Of a stretch of DNA of 64,000 nucleotides, positions 34,829 through 45,657 are shown one piece after another. Under the pieces are notes generated by a model, which was not told the origin of the DNA, searched no databases, and worked only from the letters and a program-made list of their open reading frames with translations. The stretch is from Lactarius indigo. Lineage: Eukaryota > Basidiomycota > Agaricomycetes > Russulales > Russulaceae. Each line of letters starts with the position of its first letter. Position 1 is the first letter of the stretch. The stretch covers positions 868,001 through 932,000 of the forward strand of contig JAFKAC010000007.1 of the NCBI GenBank assembly GCA_025766275.1, in the 5' to 3' direction. Made by a program: the position numbers and the translations under genes.

Positions 34829-35972
34829 TTATATCACCCGCACCAAGCGGGGGGGCGGCAAGCCCTCAGAGTTGGCGATATCGTCCCTCTGGTGTTCGTG
34901 TTCACCGTCGGCCATACCACGCCATTCCTTGTCCCCAACCTGCTCCAAAAACTTCTCCCACTCTCCGTTAGCCATTTCATAGCCCTCCGCCTGCGCATCC
35001 GGGAAACTGCCATCCTGGACTGCGCTGATGTAATTCTGGATGCCACGGCCCTCCTCGTGTCCGACGTCCGCGAAGCGCCGAACAAATTTTGCTTTTTTTC
35101 CGTGCCAGCGCGTCATCACGTCGTCCCAGACGAGCACCTGCCCGCTCGTACCGGGCCCGGCGCCGATGCCAATAGTCGGAATACTAAGGCGCGCGGTGAT
35201 GTACTCGGCTAGCCGATGCGGGATCGCCTCGAGCACAACGGCGAACGCACCGGCCTCTTCCAGCGCGAGTGCGCCGTCGAGTACGGAGCGCGCACGGGGG
35301 GCGTCACGCCCCTGCACCCGGTAGCCGGATAACGCGGTGTGGCGCTGTGGCATGAGTCCTACGTGCGCCATCACGGGCACGCCGACCTGTGAGATCCGTC
35401 GGACCGTCGCGGCGATTTCGGGCCCGCCTTCGAGTTTGACAGCCTCCACATGGCCATCTTGGATCATGCGCACGGCGGAGCGTACGGCGTCGTCGGGCGA
35501 GGCGTGGTAGGAGCCGAAGGGCATGTCAGCGACGATGAACGGGTGCATGGCGCCGCGCGCGACGGCACGGGTGTGATGCAGCATTTCGTCGAGGGTGAGG
35601 CGGGTGGTAGAGGGCAGCCCGAGACAGACTTGGGCGAGGGAATCGCCAACAAGAGCGATGTCGACTCCGTGAGTGTCGAGAGCACGTGCGGTGGGGAAGT
35701 CATATGCGGTGAGCATGGTGATTGGTGTACCAGCATGGCGCATCTGGTTTAATTGCTGGATCGTCATTTTCTTACGTGGAGGTCCTTTAGGTATAGTCAG
35801 GATTCGTGATGCCCTACGGAGGTGCATGCATGGACCCACGGGTGGGAGATGTGCCGCTCTCGAGGATCATCGGGCGCACGCTCATACATCTTCGGCCGAC
35901 AAGGAAATGCCTTGGCGTTGCCGGATTGAGCGTCGAGCGGCTCAAGACGGCTGCTCTCAGGAAGCCTTGCAT
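34829..35972 (-). CDS. panB: 3-methyl-2-oxobutanoate (ketopantoate) hydroxymethyltransferase
   Basis: Two exons, 35972-35840 and 35784-34829 (phase 1), 362 residues. The first exon encodes a basic, hydroxylated N-terminus (MQGFLRAAVLSRSTL, RRCMSVRP) typical of a mitochondrial presequence. The second starts PPRKKMTIQQLNQMRHAG and gives the family core: ITMLTAYDFPTARALD, ALVGDSLAQV, LDEMLHHTRAVARG, VKLEGG, VMAHVGLMPQ and GIGAGPGTSGQVLVWDD. PanB transfers a hydroxymethyl group from methylenetetrahydrofolate to alpha-ketoisovalerate, the first committed step to pantothenate and CoA (S. cerevisiae ECM31). The splice was chosen because it joins SGTSPTR to the family motif RKKMTI in frame. The C-terminal ~40 residues extend beyond bacterial PanB. 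Confidence 0.94.
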
Positions 35973-36400: not shown

Positions 36401-38362
36401 ATGCCCAGAGTCACCCGCTCGCAGGAGCAGTCTAAGAAACGTTCTGACTTCTGTGTCCTCATAGACAAGACATCGCGAAATGCTGTCAACAAACCTGTTC
36501 GGACCACGGAGAAAGCCAGCGAAAAGCCAAAAAAGAAAGCTATCAAGGCACCTCACGTCACAACCAAGTCCAAGGCCAAAGTCAAAGTGAAACCCCCCTC
36601 TAAATCATTACCATTGCAGGTAGAAGGTGAGGACGCGGCACCACCTGCGGACGTTGGTGAACTCGATGACCCGTTTCAACTCGTCCTCTCCGCACGACCA
36701 GGTGGTTTCGCCACACCACCCCAGAGCCATCCTCCTCCCCATCCTCCTAAGCGCCCTGAGCCTCATTCACATGACCCAATGACTACACTACCACCCCGAT
36801 TTGATGATGGCACCCCCTCTCCCGAACCTGCAAGGCGTCGTTCCCGTCACGTGGGTGACCGCGCTTCTCTTCTGCCTCCGTCCTCGCCCATTCATTTGTC
36901 TTCGAGCCCCGTGCGACAAACCCACAACCATGACGGCGATGGTAGCTCCATTTTTCCTTCCGTCCTCCGCCCTTGGTCACCGTCCCAGTTTCGTACCCCA
37001 ACCCGCAAGAACAGGAAGCGCAAGCGCACACCCCTCTCCCAACCCCAGCTGCAATCCGAAGGGGAAATAAACAACGACGATCTATTCGCGTATGGCGTGG
37101 TCGATGACCTGGATGAGCGTGAGGAGAGTGTCGCTTGGGAGAATGCAGGGTCAGATAAAGAGAACCACGGCGGCCCACGGGAGATTCCCGGATCCGACGA
37201 CATTGCAGACGGCAAACACCCTCCGTCTATGCCTATTGCGAGCGAACGCGGTATCCTCCAGCCTCGTGATGCGTCGCTCTCTCCCGCTCGCAGCGGTGAT
37301 TCTGACCCATTTGGCTTTTTTGCTACCGAGCGACTTCTCAAAGCGCGGCGCGCCGAGAAAATGGTTGCTGACACCGAGGCTGGCCCAAGCAACACACGTC
37401 GTGGGCCCCGTCTCCCATTCGGCGAACTCGCTGCTGCTGAAGTGGTACCACCCGCAATAGTCTCAGAGTCCGTCCCACTCCCACGATCCCCGTCTCAATC
37501 GCCGCCCCGCCCAGCGTCTCCGTACCGACGCTACTCCGATAGCGAGATAGAAGACTTGTATGCGCCAGCGTCTCCACCACACACCCCGCGCTCACGCCTC
37601 CCCCACGCGCAAGCAACGTCCCCGCACGATGAAGCCACGCCCGTGGTTGTCCCCGACCCACTTACACCGCGCAATGGTGACAGCGCACGCGCGTTCACGA
37701 TGCGTCGGCGCCGGCACAAGGAGCTACACAGTGTGAGCGAGCACGGGTCCGAAATCGAAGGGAGCAGTGCGCCCAGCAGCCCTTCCCCTGTGAAACGCGT
37801 CCACCAACGCCCACCCGAGCCCGAATCACAAATCGATTATGAAGATAATCAAGCAAGTGAGGAGGAAGGAAGATCGCCACCAAAGAAGGCCAGACTCAGA
37901 GGCAAGGGTGGGGGCAAGGAAAACGCTGGAAGGAAGGGCCCGGCAGCAGAAGACCCGATGGAGGTCGCCAGACGCGTTCTTGACAATGCACCTCGGCGGA
38001 GACCGGCACGTCGAACTACTGCGACGAGGGAAAGCAAGGCGTCCTCCGGTCTTGTCGAGGGAGGCGACGGTAGGCGCGAGGCACGAAGACAGTCGACGCG
38101 CGGCCGCGGCGCGACGCGTAGCACGGCTGGCCGGGCGACTCGCAGTCGGGGAGGCTCTAGGACGAGCCGTTCGCGCAAGAAGAAAGTCGACGAGAGCACC
38201 CCTGAGGACGTGAGCGAGGTGCGTTTCGGCCTACCATCATAATGTGTCTTACGCTAATGGATCGAGATACAGAAACGCGAGCAGGAGCGGTTAAAGCGGG
38301 TCGAATATTTCAAGCAGCTCGACGGTTATAAACTCCGGAAGGAGAATGTGTACGTGATCTGA
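36401..38362 (+). CDS. Large disordered KEN-box protein, candidate sororin-like cohesion factor
   Basis: Two exons, 36401-38218 and 38273-38362 (phase 0), 635 residues. Mostly low-complexity Pro/Ser/Arg sequence. What stands out: KEN boxes near residues 252 (SDKENHGG) and 505 (GGKENAGR); an FGF motif near residue 303 (SDPFGFFATERLLKARR); an RxxL in ARRVLDNA; and basic patches KNRKRKR and RSRKKK. The short last exon encodes EQERLKRVEYFKQLDGY and KLRKENVYVI. Established: metazoan sororin is a disordered, APC/C-degraded protein with a KEN box, an FGF motif that contacts Pds5, and a short conserved C-terminus ending in aromatic and acidic residues. The same order is seen here. Assignment as sororin-like is inference; a securin or unrelated nuclear regulator is possible. 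Confidence 0.8.
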
Positions 38363-38902
38363 TGTACGGATATGGATATCTATGGCGCGGAGGTTATGAC
38401 GGCTGCATACTGGATTGGGGGTATCTTCTAACTGGTTGTACAACGACTGCAGTACGTGTTTTCGGGTGTTGGTGTCCCCTATTATCGTTGTGGTATATGC
38501 ATTTTACTGTTACTCAACTGTGTGGGGACAGAGACAGGCCAATTCTTGCCGACATTGTTCAACAACGCAATGACAGTCACACGGAGCAACTGTTTGCAAC
38601 TATAAAGAGAAAGAAATTGATCATCTTCTGCTCTTAATTAAGATTCGATCCCGGTGGACCGTGAGTCACCGTGGCAGTACTACGGTGTTGAAACTGAGTG
38701 ATGAGTTTTACACATTGATAGCGCTCGGATCTCACATGAGCCAAAAAAACGGGGTGAAGGAGTGGTGAAGGTGAAGCTCGGGGCTTGATGACAATCATGG
38801 CTACGTCATCATGAGCGTACGAAGCTTATAAAAGCTCGTAGACGCCATCTGATTTTGCTACAGATTTCCTGCACATCATCGACAGCGAATTAAACCAAAG
38901 CT
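38363..38902. other. 3' flank of sororin-like gene and AKR1 promoter
   Basis: No gene. Parts are duplicated after AKR1 (40463 onward) and before AKR3 (about 43690-43870). TATAAAAG at 38827-38834 lies 76 bp before the AKR1 ATG. Confidence 0.55.
38827..38834 (+). promoter_or_regulatory. TATA box of AKR1
   Basis: TATAAAAG 76 bp upstream of the ATG; equivalents at 40882 (76 bp) and 44029 (78 bp) upstream of AKR2 and AKR3. Confidence 0.65.
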
Positions 38903-40456
38903 ATGACCACTCCCACTGTAACGAAAAGGGTTCCCTACGGTATATCTTCACTCCTTGAATCCTCTGAAGTATGTTTTGCTGATGCTGAGAAATCGTAGTT
39001 CGCCTAGGAAAGTCAGGGCTGAAAGTGTCCAGGATCATTCTTGGCATGATGTCGTACGGCGACTCTCGTTGGCAACAGTGGGTACTCGGCGAGAAGGAAG
39101 CCATCGAGCATATAAAATTCGCGTGAGCACTCCTCTGCTCTCACGCGTAGTATGATTGTCCTTACGTGCGTCGATAAGATACGAGCACGGCGTGAACACC
39201 TTCGATACTGCGGACATATACTCAAATGGCCTTTCTGAGGTGCATCTCGGTACGGCCATCAAAGTGCTCAATCTACCACGCGAGGAGATCGTGGTCATGA
39301 CAAAGGTGCGCGTACATCAGGCTACCTCCGTATCGACGTACAGTCGGTGCTAATAACGTGTCGAAGCTGTTCGGAGCCGTCGGCAAACCAGGTGACGGTC
39401 CAACGTGGGCGACACCGCCCGCTGAGCTGGACAACGTGGGATTTGTAAATCAGCATGGCCTTAGTCGCAAGGTACACATTCTCACCTCATACTGTATGGG
39501 CTGATTTGTGACCTCGTCGCAGCACATCTTTGATTCGGTCAAGAAATCGCTCGAGCGTCTCCAACTCGACTATGTCGACGTCTTGCAGTGCCATCGTTTC
39601 GATCCCGATACTCCAATCGAGGAGACCATGCAAGCTCTACACGACGTTGTCAAGGCAGGATACGCCCGATACATTGGGATGAGTAGTTGCTACGCTTGGC
39701 AATGTATGTGCTCATCCATGTGAATTCTGCGACTAGTTCACTGATCATCGGCCCAGTCCATATCATGCAAAGTGGGGAGCCTATGTCCAACTTCCGAGCA
39801 TGCTGCTGACGAGGAAAACTCTAGATTATGCTATCGCAAACAATCTGACGCCTTTCATCTCGATGCAGAATCACCACTCACTCGTATACCGTGAGGAAGA
39901 GCGGGAGATGTTCCCGACCCTGAACCACTTCGGTGTGGGTATCATCCCGTGGTCGCCGCTTGCGCGCGGTCTCCTCACCCGTCCGTTCAAAACCGACGAA
40001 GTCTCAAAGCGAAGTGGCACCGATCTGTGCGTTTCTCTCGACGCTCTTTCTTCGCCTTAAGTATCTGACTCCTCTGGTGCTCGCAGCTTCCTTGCTGGGT
40101 ATCTTCAAGGAGCGGGTACACAGGAGATTGTCAATAGGTCCGTTCTTACCCACCAAGCTACATGATTCTCAGTCTCATGAGTGGTCCAATAGGGTCGAAG
40201 AGATTTCCAAAAAGCGTGGGATAAGCATGGCCAAGGTCGCCGTAGCGTGGTCATTGTCGCGTGTCACTGCACCCGTTGTCGGTTCCACGAGCCTCAAGAA
40301 TCTCGAAGAGCTTATAAGTACGTGGAATTCCTACATATCAGGATGTGAGACCAACGCCTAGGTTTCTTTACAGATGGCACCGAGGTTACATTGACCGAGG
40401 AAGAGATCAAGTATTTGGAGGAGCCGTACAAGGCACGCTCAGTGTTGGGACATTAA
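38903..40456 (+). CDS. Aldo-keto reductase AKR1
   Basis: Ten exons; the first is [12 protein letters not shown], then [20 protein letters not shown]. Catalytic tetrad: Asp in NTFDTAD, Tyr in DIYSNG, Lys in VVMTK, His in LQCHRFD. Further family blocks: [55 protein letters not shown] and the NADP-binding [12 protein letters not shown]. It resembles the voltage-gated K-channel-beta/YcsN-like oxidoreductases (NADPH-dependent carbonyl reduction); substrate unknown. Exon 6 is only 15 nt (TCCATATCATGCAAA), and its donor here (GTGGGG) is weaker than in AKR2 and AKR3. Stop TAA at 40454-40456 after RSVLGH. First of three tandem copies. Confidence 0.88.
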
Positions 40457-40957: not shown

Positions 40958-42508
40958 ATGACCACCCCTACTGTAACGAAAAGGGTTCCCTACGGTATAG
41001 CTTCGCTCCTTGAATCTTCTTTTTGAATGAGTTTTCCTGATGTCAGGAATCATAGTTCGCCTAGGAAAGTCGGGACTCAAAGTGTCTAGGATCATTCTTG
41101 GCATGATGTCGTACGGTGATCCCCGTTGGCAACCGTGGGTACTCGGCGAGAAAGAGGCCATTGAGCATGTAAAGTTCGCGTGAGTACACCTTCGTTCTCA
41201 CACGTGAGATTGTCCTTGGATGCGCCGAAAAGATATAAGCACGGCGTAAACACCTTTGATACCGCGAACGTATACTCGCATGGCCTTTCTGAGGTGTATC
41301 TTGGTAATGCTATCAAAGTGCTCAATCTACCACGCGAGGAGATCGTGGTCATGACAAAGGTGTGTGTGGACAACTTGAACTGACTACCTTCGTACCAACG
41401 CTAATAAAATCTCAAAGCTGTCCAGAGCTGTTGGTAAAATAGGTGATGGGTCAACTCGGGAGATACCGTCAGCTGAGCTTGACCAGATGGGATTTGTGAA
41501 TCGGCATGGTCTTAGTCGCAAGGTACACATTCTCACCCCGTCATGTATGGGCTGATTTATGATATCTTGTCACAGCATATCTTTGATTCGGTCAAGAAAT
41601 CGCTCGAGCGTCTGCAACTCGACTATATCGACGTCTTGCAATGCCATCGTTTCGATCCCAGTACACCAATCGAGGAGACCATGCAAGCTCTACACGACGT
41701 CGTCAAGGCAGGGTACGTTCGATACGTTGGCATGAGTAGTTGCTATGCTTGGCAATGTGTGCACTCGTTTATTTGATTCCGTGAATAGTTCACTGATCAT
41801 CAGCTCAGTCCATGTCATGCAGAGTGAGAAACCGATGCCCAACTTCCGAACATGCTAATGATGACGCAAACTCTAGATTATGCTATCACGAACAATCTGA
41901 CGCCTTTCATCTCGATGCAGAATCACCACTCGCTTGTATACCGTGAGGAAGAGCGGGAGATGTTCCCGACCCTAAATCACTTTGGTGTGGGTATCATCCC
42001 GTGGTCGCCGCTTGCGCGCGGTCTCCTTACCCGTCCGTTCAAAACTGACGAAGTCTCAACGCGAAGTGGCACCGATCGGTGCGTTTCTCTCGACACACAC
42101 TCCACGCCTTAATTACCTGACTTCTCTGGTGGTTGCAGCTTCCTTACTGGGTATCTTGAAGGAGCAGGTACCCAGGATATTATCAACAGGTCCATTCTCA
42201 CTCACAAATCTCCATAACTTTCGGTCTCATGAGTGCACCTAGGGTCGAAGAGATCTCCAAGAAGCGCGAGATAAGCATGGCCAAGGTCGCGCTGGCGTGG
42301 TCGTTGTCGCACGTCACCGCACCTGTCATTGGCTCCACGAGCCTCAAGAATCTCGAAGAGCTTATAGGTGCGTGGAATTCCTACATATTAGGATATGAGG
42401 CCAACACCTAGCTTGTTTGCAGATGGCACCGAGATCATGTTGACACAAGAAGAGATTCAATATTTGGAGGAGCCGTACAAGGCACGCTCAGTGATGGGAC
42501 ATGCTTAG
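40958..42508 (+). CDS. Aldo-keto reductase AKR2
   Basis: Same ten-exon structure as AKR1 and fully open: [121 protein letters not shown] and RSVMGHA, then TAG. The tetrad Asp, Tyr, Lys, His is intact. Acceptor and donor signals are retained; exon 6 has a better donor (GTGAGA) than AKR1. Predicted NADPH-dependent carbonyl reductase of unknown substrate, probably cytosolic. Shares the 76-bp TATA spacing with its paralogues, so expression may be similar. Confidence 0.88.
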
Positions 42509-43344: not shown

Positions 43345-43670
43345 AAAATAAGAAAATGGAAGCTGCCAGACACGTTCTCATACCCAGGCAGAGGTTGGCA
43401 CGGCGGACTACAGCGACAAAGAAAAGCAAGGCGTTCTCCAGTCTCATCGAGGGAGTCAATGGTGGGCGCGTGCGAGTGGATGGGCGTCTCGCAGTATGGG
43501 TGGCTCTAGGAAGAGCTATTCGCGCAAGAAGAACGATGACGAGAGTACCCCTGAGGGTGTGAGCGAGGCGTATCTCGGCTCAACGGTACTCCACACTGAA
43601 TTGAGGTCTGAGAAGGAGGGGCTAAAGTGGGTCGAGTATTTCAGGTGGCCCGGCGGCTATGGACATTGGG
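43345..43670 (+). pseudogene. Pseudogene fragment of the sororin-like gene 3' end
   Basis: Copies the parent from about 37960 to past the last intron. EAARHVLIPRQRLARRTTAT matches the parent's EVARRVLDNAPRRRPARRTT, and RKKNDDESTPEGVSE matches RKKKVDESTPEDVSE but in another frame, so an indel has broken it. The intron donor GTGCGT has become GCGTAT, and the last exon is degraded (EYFRWPGGYG). No 5' two-thirds. Confidence 0.8.
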
Positions 43671-44106
43671 AGCAGAGTCTGTACCATCCGACGCATGGAT
43701 GTGGATACAGTATACAGGTGGAGACAGACCAGTCAATTCTTCTCGACATTGCTCACACGTTCAAGTGGCTCCAACTACAAAAAGAAAAGAAAGGAATCGA
43801 CGATGATGATGACTAATCAAGTTGATCGTGATCTCGGTGGACTGTGGGTCATGGTCTTGGTCATGGTAGCACACTTTAGGTGGGTCATCTTGTCTCGCCT
43901 GTCCATCCGGAAAGCAGAAATGCGCCCGAAAAAGTGCCAAAAGGGAAACTGGATAGCGCTATGGCCCACATCATGAGCCAAGAGCTCAGCTTGATCAAAA
44001 TTGTGACGTATCGTGTATATCATGGACGTATAAAGGTTCGTAGTCGTTGTCTGGTGTTGCTCCAGATTTCACTTCTCCATTATTCACAGCAAACCCAGTC
44101 ACGACC

Positions 44107-45657
44107 ATGACCACCCCTACTGTAACAAAAAGAGTTCCCTACAGTATGGCTTCGTTCCTCGAATCCTTATGGATGGGTTGTGCTGACACGAGGAATTGCA
44201 GTTCGCCTTGGAAAGTCGGGGCTCAAAGTGTCAAGGATCATTCTTGGAATGATGTCCTATGGCGACCCCCGCTGGCAACCGTGGGTACTCGGCGAGAAAG
44301 AGACCATCGAGCATATAAAATTCGCGTGAGTACACCACCGTTCTCACACGTACGACCGTCTCACGTGCGCCGATAATAAGATACGAGCACGGCGTGAACA
44401 CCTTCGATACCGCGAACGTCTACTCAAACGGCCTTTCTGAGGTGTATCTTGGCAATGCCATCAAGACGCTCAACCTACCACGTGAGGAGATCGTGGTCAT
44501 GACAAAGGTGTGTCGACAACTGTCTGCCTCCGTATCTAAGTACAGCCGATTCTCATAACGTGTTGTAGCTGTTCGCACCTGTCGGGAAACAAGGCGATGG
44601 GCTAATTTGGGCGAAACCGTCCGCTGAGCTTGACCAGATGGGATTTGTGAATCAACACGGTCTTAGTCGCAAGGTACACATTCTCTCATCCATATTGTAC
44701 GAACTGATTTGTGACCCCCTGTCGCAGCATATCTTTGATTCGGTCAAGAAATCGCTCGAGCGTCTCCAACTCGACTATATCGACGTCTTGCAATGCCATC
44801 GTTTCGATTCCGATACCCCAATCGAGGAGACCATGCAAGCTCTACACGACGTTGTCAAGGCGGGACACGTCCGATACATCGGCATGAGTAGTTGTTACGC
44901 CTGGCAATGTATGTGCTCGTCCATGTGAATTCCGCGACTAGTTCACTGACCATCAGCTCAGTCCATGTCATGCAGAGTGAGAAACTGATGCCCAACTTCC
45001 GAACATGCTCCTGACGACAAACTCTAGATTATGCTATCGCAAACAATCTGACGCCTTTCATCTCGATGCAGAATCACCACTCGCTTGTATACCGTGAGGA
45101 AGAGCGGGAGATGTTCCCGACACTGGACCACTTCGGTGTGGGTATCATCCCGTGGTCGCCGCTTGCACGTGGCCTCCTTACCCGTCCGTTCAAGACTGAC
45201 GAGGTCTCAAAACGGAGTGGCACCGATTCGTGCGTTTCTCTTGATACCCTTTGCCCCTTAGTTGCCTGACTCCGTTGGGGCCTACAGCTTACTTGCTAGC
45301 TACCTCGAAGGAGTAGGTACCCAGGAGATTGTCAATAGGTCCGTTCTTACGCGCGAGGCTGAATGGTCTTGGTCTCATGGGTCACGACAGGGTCGAAGAG
45401 ATTTCCAAGAAGCGCGGGATAAGCATGGCCAAGATCACCCTGGCGTGGTCGTTGACGCGTGTCACCGCGCCCATTATCGGCTCCACGAGCCTCAAGAACC
45501 TCGAAGAGCTCATAGGTGGGTACAACTGCTACATACCCGGAGATGAGGACCCATGCCTAACTTGTTTGCAGATGGTACCGAGATCACGTTGACGCAAGAA
45601 GAGATTAAATATTTGGAGGAGCCGTACAAGGCACGCTCAGTGATGGGGCATGCTTAA
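44107..45657 (+). CDS. Aldo-keto reductase AKR3
   Basis: Ten exons, open throughout, closest to AKR2 at the C-terminus. Blocks: [144 protein letters not shown] and RSVMGHA. The first exon ends TAC A rather than TAC G, changing Val13 to Ile. Tetrad intact. TATAAAG at 44029-44035 lies 78 bp upstream. Preceded by the sororin-like pseudogene fragment, which shows that the duplicated block extended into the neighbour's coding region. Confidence 0.88.

What the first reader, a model, noticed from the sequence alone, without database searches (positions are those of the whole stretch)
36401..38362. Candidate fungal sororin-like cohesion protector
A 635-residue disordered protein has two KEN boxes, an FGF motif in a short conserved island (DPFGFFATERLL), and a conserved final exon (RVEYFKQLDGYKLRKENVYV). 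Degron, then FGF, then short C-terminal box is the layout known for sororin, which counters Wapl on Pds5-bound cohesin. Fungal members are poorly characterised.
Basis: inference. Interest (0 to 1): 0.85.

Follow-up and report, generated by a model that had tools for sequence, protein, structure and literature searches.

The report
Mushroom sororin-like cohesin protector
An unannotated, mostly unstructured protein of a milk-cap mushroom carries the short tail signature of sororin, the protein that keeps duplicated chromosomes tied together, and so probably extends a known protein family to mushrooms rather than revealing a new kind of system.

Summary
Window 36401-38362 (+) encodes a 635-aa, two-exon protein, the Lactarius indigo hypothetical protein P0001. 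It is predicted to be disordered except for short islands: DPFGF, a DPxxxAxxL helix, and a C-terminal box in its own last exon. Relatives run through Agaricomycotina.

The box carries F619-x-x-L622-D623-x-Y625. That is the register of the four S. pombe Sor1 residues shown by mutation to matter (F299, V302, D303, Y305) and the spacing of human F241/F247; the plant Haspin sororin domain (YFRDIDAFE) fits too (PMC11148194, PMC10656103, passages). A K/R-rich stretch and polar linker precede the box, and AlphaFold gives a 22-residue helix in a close relative. The genome also has PDS5 with an APDAP loop, WAPL, an Eco1-type acetyltransferase and STAG.

Against: Pfam Sororin_C does not match, HMM-HMM comparison with a human tail fails, no YSR motif was seen, and the KEN boxes are conserved only in the Russulales-type set.

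Verdict: probably (0.78) the basidiomycete sororin, a new member of a known kind; sororin is already characterised in S. pombe and Sordaria. What it adds: a near-universal FGF-type island through mushrooms, and Russulales KEN boxes that those two fungal sororins are reported to lack.

The parts
36401..38218 (+). Exon 1, residues 1-606
   Evidence: Open frame from ATG; joined protein matches P0001
37157..37165 (+). KEN box 1 (residues 253-255)
   Evidence: SDKEN in 65 of 65 of the Russulales-type set
37304..37351 (+). FGF island DPFGFFATERLLKARR (residues 302-317)
   Evidence: DPFG[FLI] type in 156 of 157 proteins; helix after it in both AlphaFold models
37916..37924 (+). KEN box 2 (residues 506-508)
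   Evidence: GKEN string in 61 of 65 of the Russulales-type set
37952..38002 (+). Third conserved island, DPMEVARRVLDNAPRRR (residues 518-534), function unknown
   Evidence: Alignments; short helix predicted at this place in two relatives
37988..38185 (+). K/R-rich stretch (residues 530-595)
   Evidence: K/R-rich window before the box in 93 of 105, 16.6 expected
38186..38218 (+). Polar/acidic linker VDESTPEDVSE (residues 596-606)
   Evidence: Sequence
38219..38272 (+). Last intron, GT-AG
   Evidence: Best-scoring join keeps the conserved tail; 42 of 52 box-less relatives read past the same donor
38273..38362 (+). Exon 2: C-terminal sororin-type box (residues 607-635) and stop
   Evidence: Readable in 105 of 157 proteins
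38309..38329 (+). Box core F619-KQ-L622-D623-G-Y625
   Evidence: Same register as S. pombe Sor1 F299/V302/D303/Y305; column counts

Best explanation
This is the basidiomycete sororin. The C-terminal box would form a helix with an extended tail and dock on the Smc3 neck and the Scc1 N-terminal helices, holding the cohesin exit gate shut. The FGF island would compete with Wapl for the Pds5 trough (WEST) or occupy the cleft in the Wapl C-terminal domain. The K/R-rich stretch may hold the protein near DNA. In Russulales the KEN boxes would let APC/C-Cdh1 remove it in G1. Shown here: the gene, the conserved islands, the residue register of the box, the predicted helix, and the presence of Pds5 with an APDAP loop, Wapl, an Eco1-type acetyltransferase and STAG in the same genome. 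Inferred from studied sororins: every binding step, the Wapl antagonism and the APC/C control.
For: Box register equals the functionally tested S. pombe residues and in 103 ungapped boxes is F/Y, L/V, D/E/Q, Y/F at 0, +3, +4, +6 with a hydrophobic residue at +8 and E at +11 in all 103, as in the animal consensus. Human F241/F247 are six apart, as are F619/Y625. Plant Haspin sororin domain YFRDIDAFE. K/R-rich stretch before the box in 93 of 105 against 16.6 expected. FGF-type island in 156 of 157 and before the box in 105 of 105. Otherwise disordered, with a 22-26 residue box helix; the published box helix is six turns. Partners: WAPL, PDS5 with FAPDAP, Eco1-type acetyltransferase, STAG. Chance of the four-position core near an end 0.0003-0.0016.
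Against: Pfam Sororin_C does not match 23 members or three isolated tails, although a recalled human tail scores 43 bits. HMM-HMM with that tail is not significant: score 10.0 over 5 wrong columns, reached by 20 of 200 shuffled controls. No YSR motif in the L. indigo protein; no aromatic residue at -8, where vertebrates have W233 (E in 92 of 103). The FGF context differs from vertebrate [S/T]PhiFGFExL. AlphaFold shows one helix and no strand where two helices and a strand are described (of the text in PMC11148194 seen; models), and both models have low mean pLDDT. KEN boxes are not conserved outside the Russulales-type set. The register was compared after seeing the box. No ascomycete sororin sequence could be fetched for a direct comparison.
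Confidence: 0.78

Rival explanations
1. A different disordered chromosomal protein that carries a sororin-type box as a cohesin-docking tail, without being the orthologue of sororin or a Wapl antagonist, as plant Haspin carries the box.
For: The box alone does not make a sororin: plant Haspin has it. Profile methods find no link to animal sororin.
Against: The rest of the described layout is also present: disorder, FGF-type island before the box, K/R-rich stretch and linker, extreme C-terminal position. No Pfam domain was found.
Confidence: 0.14
2. A securin or other APC/C substrate: the KEN boxes are the point and the tail binds something other than cohesin.
For: Three KEN strings, two of them conserved in the Russulales-type set; securins are disordered proteins with degrons (recalled).
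Against: KEN outside the tail is in only 17 of the 92 other proteins, while island and box persist. No separase-binding test was possible.
Confidence: 0.04
3. The box is half of an EF-hand-like helix or an unrelated helix and its likeness to sororin is chance.
For: Box profile A6 hits a flagellar calcium-binding protein in the PDB at E 0.011.
Against: That hit covers only the helix (profile 3-23); the box has no EF-hand calcium loop and the protein ends there. Positions +3, +4, +6, +8 and +11 fit sororin consensuses published independently of this gene.
Confidence: 0.04

Closest known systems
S. pombe Sor1 (SPAC9E9.05), PMC11148194, passages read
   Same: F-x-x-Phi-D-x-Y box core near the C-terminus, K/R-rich stretch before it, a putative FGF motif, little conservation elsewhere
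   Different: 313 aa; no KEN box found by its authors; sequence not available here, so only the named residues were compared
Sordaria macrospora Sororin (SMAC4_08091), PMC12758814, passages read
   Same: Large, mostly unstructured fungal protein (701 aa) with C-terminal sororin boxes
   Different: Described as lacking FGF and KEN; sequence not compared here
Vertebrate sororin (CDCA5), PMC10656103, passages read
   Same: KEN (in the Russulales-type set), then FGF, K/R-rich stretch, then box with two aromatics six apart
   Different: No YSR motif and no W at -8 here; different residues after FGF; no Pfam Sororin_C match
Plant Haspin sororin domain (YFRDIDAFE), PMC11148194, passage read
   Same: YF[RK]xPhiDx[FY] core
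   Different: Haspin is a kinase, not a sororin

Membership tests
Sororin | C-terminal sororin domain with the functionally tested residues (S. pombe F299, V302, D303, Y305) | tested here: met
   F619, L622, D623, Y625 in register; counts; published residues
Sororin | Positively charged stretch, then a polar linker of 10-20 residues, then the motif | tested here: met
   Residues 530-595 and 11-residue linker 596-606; K/R-rich window in 93 of 105 relatives
Sororin | Motif folds as helices and a strand (two helices and a strand in PMC11148194; one six-turn helix in PMC10656103) | tested here: inconclusive
   One helix of 22 or 26 residues and no strand in AlphaFold models of two relatives
Sororin | Largely unstructured protein | tested here: met
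   426 of 616 and 254 of 446 residues with pLDDT under 50
Sororin | FGF motif (vertebrates, S. pombe; reported absent in Sordaria and the plant protein) | tested here: met
   FGF in 127, FGL 26, FGI 3 of 157
Sororin | KEN box (vertebrates, Dalmatian; reported absent in S. pombe, Sordaria and the plant protein) | tested here: inconclusive
   Conserved in the Russulales-type set only
Sororin | YSR motif (vertebrates) | tested here: not met
   No YSR or Y[SG][RK] in the L. indigo protein; not a family-wide feature
Sororin | Match to Pfam Sororin_C / Sororin_middle | tested here: not met
   authors of PMC11148194 also got no significant animal-to-fungus hit
Sororin | Binds cohesin and Pds5 and antagonises Wapl | not testable with these tools
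   No complex prediction or experiment available; the partners exist in the genome

The most novel reading that the evidence does not exclude
Agaricomycotina keep a nearly full animal-like sororin (FGF-type island, K/R-rich stretch, box, and in Russulales conserved KEN boxes), so FGF-based Wapl competition, and perhaps APC/C-timed removal, would predate the animal-fungus split and have been lost or altered in the ascomycetes studied so far. The third conserved helix would be a further, undescribed contact with cohesin or Pds5.
Probability: 0.3. Interest if true: 0.6.

Novelty: new member of a known kind. Interest (0 to 1): 0.48.

Why it matters
Sororin protects sister-chromatid cohesion from Wapl. 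If the mushroom gene is sororin, the family can be followed by ordinary sequence search through Agaricomycotina, where the box is well conserved, and tractable mushrooms (the family includes Coprinopsis cinerea CC1G_04654, P0138) could test how FGF and degron control evolved. It would also name a gene whose named relatives are all labelled hypothetical or uncharacterized protein.

Tried and rejected
PDB profile hit to DASH subunit Ask1 (E 0.0067): the alignment covers low-complexity SSP and K/R sequence, not the FGF island or the box; rejected. Flagellar calcium-binding protein hit (E 0.011): helix only; rejected. Foldseek against the PDB with the Athelia model: two matches, E above 5. HMM-HMM comparison with a human tail: negative. 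Pfam Sororin_middle and Sororin_C in the own genome: no match, but the first look passed no candidate on, so this says little. PADLOC: none, not a relevant library. PDB search with the recalled human tail: none. Literature: 'sororin'+'basidiomycete'+'cohesin' gave one paper (PMC10656103), whose passages name basidiomycetes for a Ustilago Pds5:Scc3:Wapl model and for Scc3 repeats; 'sororin'+'mushroom' gave one cohesinopathy review, listing seen only; a broad query with named basidiomycetes (2 of 6 terms) found 4,829 papers and the 10 listed had no 'sororin', so it is no evidence of absence; CC1G_04654 gave none. Supplementary Fig. 1 of PMC11148194, which may list basidiomycetes, was not seen, so I do not claim a first report.

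Full report
WHAT IS THERE. The window lies in a 90.3-Mb assembly in 291 contigs. Its gene product matches a hypothetical protein of Lactarius indigo (P0001) at 100% identity and 100% coverage as rounded by the tool. The gene is on the + strand: exon 1 36401-38218, a 54-base GT-AG intron, exon 2 38273-38362, 635 residues. A second copy on contig C126 (99% over exon 1; probably the other haplotype) differs at 8 residues, none in the FGF island or the box. The NCBI model P0001 splices past KENV and lacks YVI.

FAMILY. Three searches gave 156 distinct proteins. No Pfam family matches the L. indigo protein at E up to 10. Among 23 aligned members scanned one by one, four families appear, each in one member, best E 0.33. 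Two stretches stand out in alignments of 16, 50 and 40 members: DPFG, and the C-terminal box. A weaker third is DPxxxAxxLexxxPRR.

THE BOX. With my spliced model the set is 157 proteins (L. indigo twice). By the strict core F..[ILVMA][DE].[FY], with F 8-22 residues before the end, 88 of 157 match. With Q allowed at +4, Y at 0, one inserted residue, and anywhere in the last 90 residues, 105 match. Of the 52 without, 42 read past the last intron donor and 10 have other ends, among them the mis-spliced P0002 and P0055, truncated models, and the divergent Calocera tail KLYKDLEKY, which my pattern missed. In the 103 boxes without an insertion: F 101 and Y 2 at position 0; L or V at +3 in all; D 61, E 32, Q 10 at +4; Y or F at +6 in all; hydrophobic at +8 in all; E at +11 in all; R at -4 in 102 (positions 0, +3, +4 and +6 were partly fixed by the pattern used to find the boxes, +8, +11 and -4 were not). 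S. pombe Sor1 with F299A, V302A, D303A or Y305A fails to rescue the eso1-G799D sor1-deletion strain (the mutant proteins are expressed, at reduced level), and D303A weakens co-precipitation with Psm3 (PMC11148194, passages). Their spacing (0, +3, +4, +6) and residue types are those of F619, L622, D623 and Y625. Human F241 and F247 (PMC10656103, passage) are six apart, as are F619 and Y625. The animal consensus FxE[A/Phi][E/D]x[F/Y]ELxPhiE agrees at 0, +3, +4, +6, +8 (hydrophobic, not always L) and +11, and differs at +2, +7 in part, and +10; the aromatic at -8 is absent (E in 92 of 103). The plant Haspin sororin domain YFRDIDAFE fits as well. Chance of the four-position core 8-22 residues before an end is 0.0003 (own composition) to 0.0016 (average composition) in 200,000 random tails each. 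In 54,186 residues of six-frame window ORFs of 60 aa or more the core occurs 3 times and the longer pattern never. The comparison was made after the box had been seen, so these are guides, not planned tests.

SURROUNDINGS OF THE BOX. A window of 12 residues with at least 6 K/R lies within 75 residues before the box in 93 of 105, against 16.6 expected from shuffles. AlphaFold models of two relatives are mostly low-confidence (mean pLDDT 53.2 and 48.6). In both, a helix follows DPFG, a short helix lies at the third island, and a helix of 26 residues (Athelia) or 22 (Lactarius psammicola) lies in the box, with mean pLDDT 91 in its best block, followed by an extended tail; the second model has one more short helix (382-388). 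PMC10656103 describes a six-turn helix whose last 4-5 residues straddle beta sheets, on the Smc3 neck and the Scc1 N-terminal helix (passages).

FGF AND KEN. The island is in 156 of 157 (FGF 127, FGL 26, FGI 3). The residues after it differ from the vertebrate [S/T]PhiFGFExL. SDKEN (the KEN253 site) is in 65 of 65 and a GKEN string in 61 of 65 of a Russulales-type set defined by ids P0001-P0063, P0115 and my model, many of them unnamed. Among the 92 others, 17 have a KEN outside the last 25 residues, 5.0 expected: more than chance, but not one conserved site. The KEN at 629 is inside the box and its E is the invariant +11 residue. S. pombe Sor1 and Sordaria Sororin are described as lacking KEN, and Sordaria as lacking FGF (passages).

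PARTNERS. In the same genome: WAPL (two places); PDS5 with FAPDAP on both contigs; a TYSRK string, which fits the published Pds5-interaction motif, in an open frame about 2.2 kb upstream of the WAPL match (not spliced or confirmed); an ESCO-type acetyltransferase domain; and STAG. WAPL and PDS5 matches lie about 38 kb apart on both contigs.

NEGATIVE TESTS. Pfam Sororin_C: no match for three isolated tails although the recalled human tail scores 43 bits. HMM-HMM against that tail: score 10.0 over five wrong columns, reached by 20 of 200 column-shuffled controls. PMC11148194 likewise reports no significant animal-to-fungus hit (passage). No YSR motif in the L. indigo protein.

VERDICT. The protein most likely is sororin: box on Smc3:Scc1, FGF island against Wapl on Pds5 or on Wapl itself, protecting cohesion. 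I put this at 0.78. Binding and function are inferred from studied relatives. It is a new member of a known kind; the near-universal FGF-type island and the conserved Russulales KEN boxes are the features worth a specialist's time.

Noticed in passing
window 43356-43707: Decayed partial copy of the 3' part of the same gene (74% and 70% DNA identity to 37958-38078 and 38133-38378), with a broken box (WVEYFRWPGGYG...) and no long intact frame; the C126 copy has a stop inside.
   Followed up: partly
window 38827-40453, 41001-42502, 44029-45651: Tandem copies of an aldo/keto reductase gene (83-84% DNA identity; Pfam Aldo_ket_red matches in two of the copies); the decayed sororin-like copy lies just before the last one.
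   Followed up: partly
window 34829-35866 (-): Upstream neighbour is ketopantoate hydroxymethyltransferase (Pfam Pantoate_transf, E 5e-106).
   Followed up: yes
P0001 (NCBI H4582DRAFT_1390694): The public gene model of this locus appears mis-spliced at the last codons; P0002 and P0056 also show non-conserved ends, and P0007 and P0009 keep extra residues where the last intron lies.
   Followed up: partly
G000 contigs C1 (two places), C14, C219, C274, C248: Six weak 37-38-residue matches to Pfam STAG (E 3.5e-4 to 5.4e-4), each in a 68-aa open frame at dispersed places, looking like a repeated element rather than cohesin genes.
   Followed up: no
G000:C83:32256-74394 and G000:C226:2199266-2241002: WAPL and PDS5 matches lie about 38 kb apart in both copies.
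   Followed up: no
Mycena pura P0087 and P0088: Two family members with close gene numbers and the same listed contig length in one species, perhaps a tandem pair.
   Followed up: no
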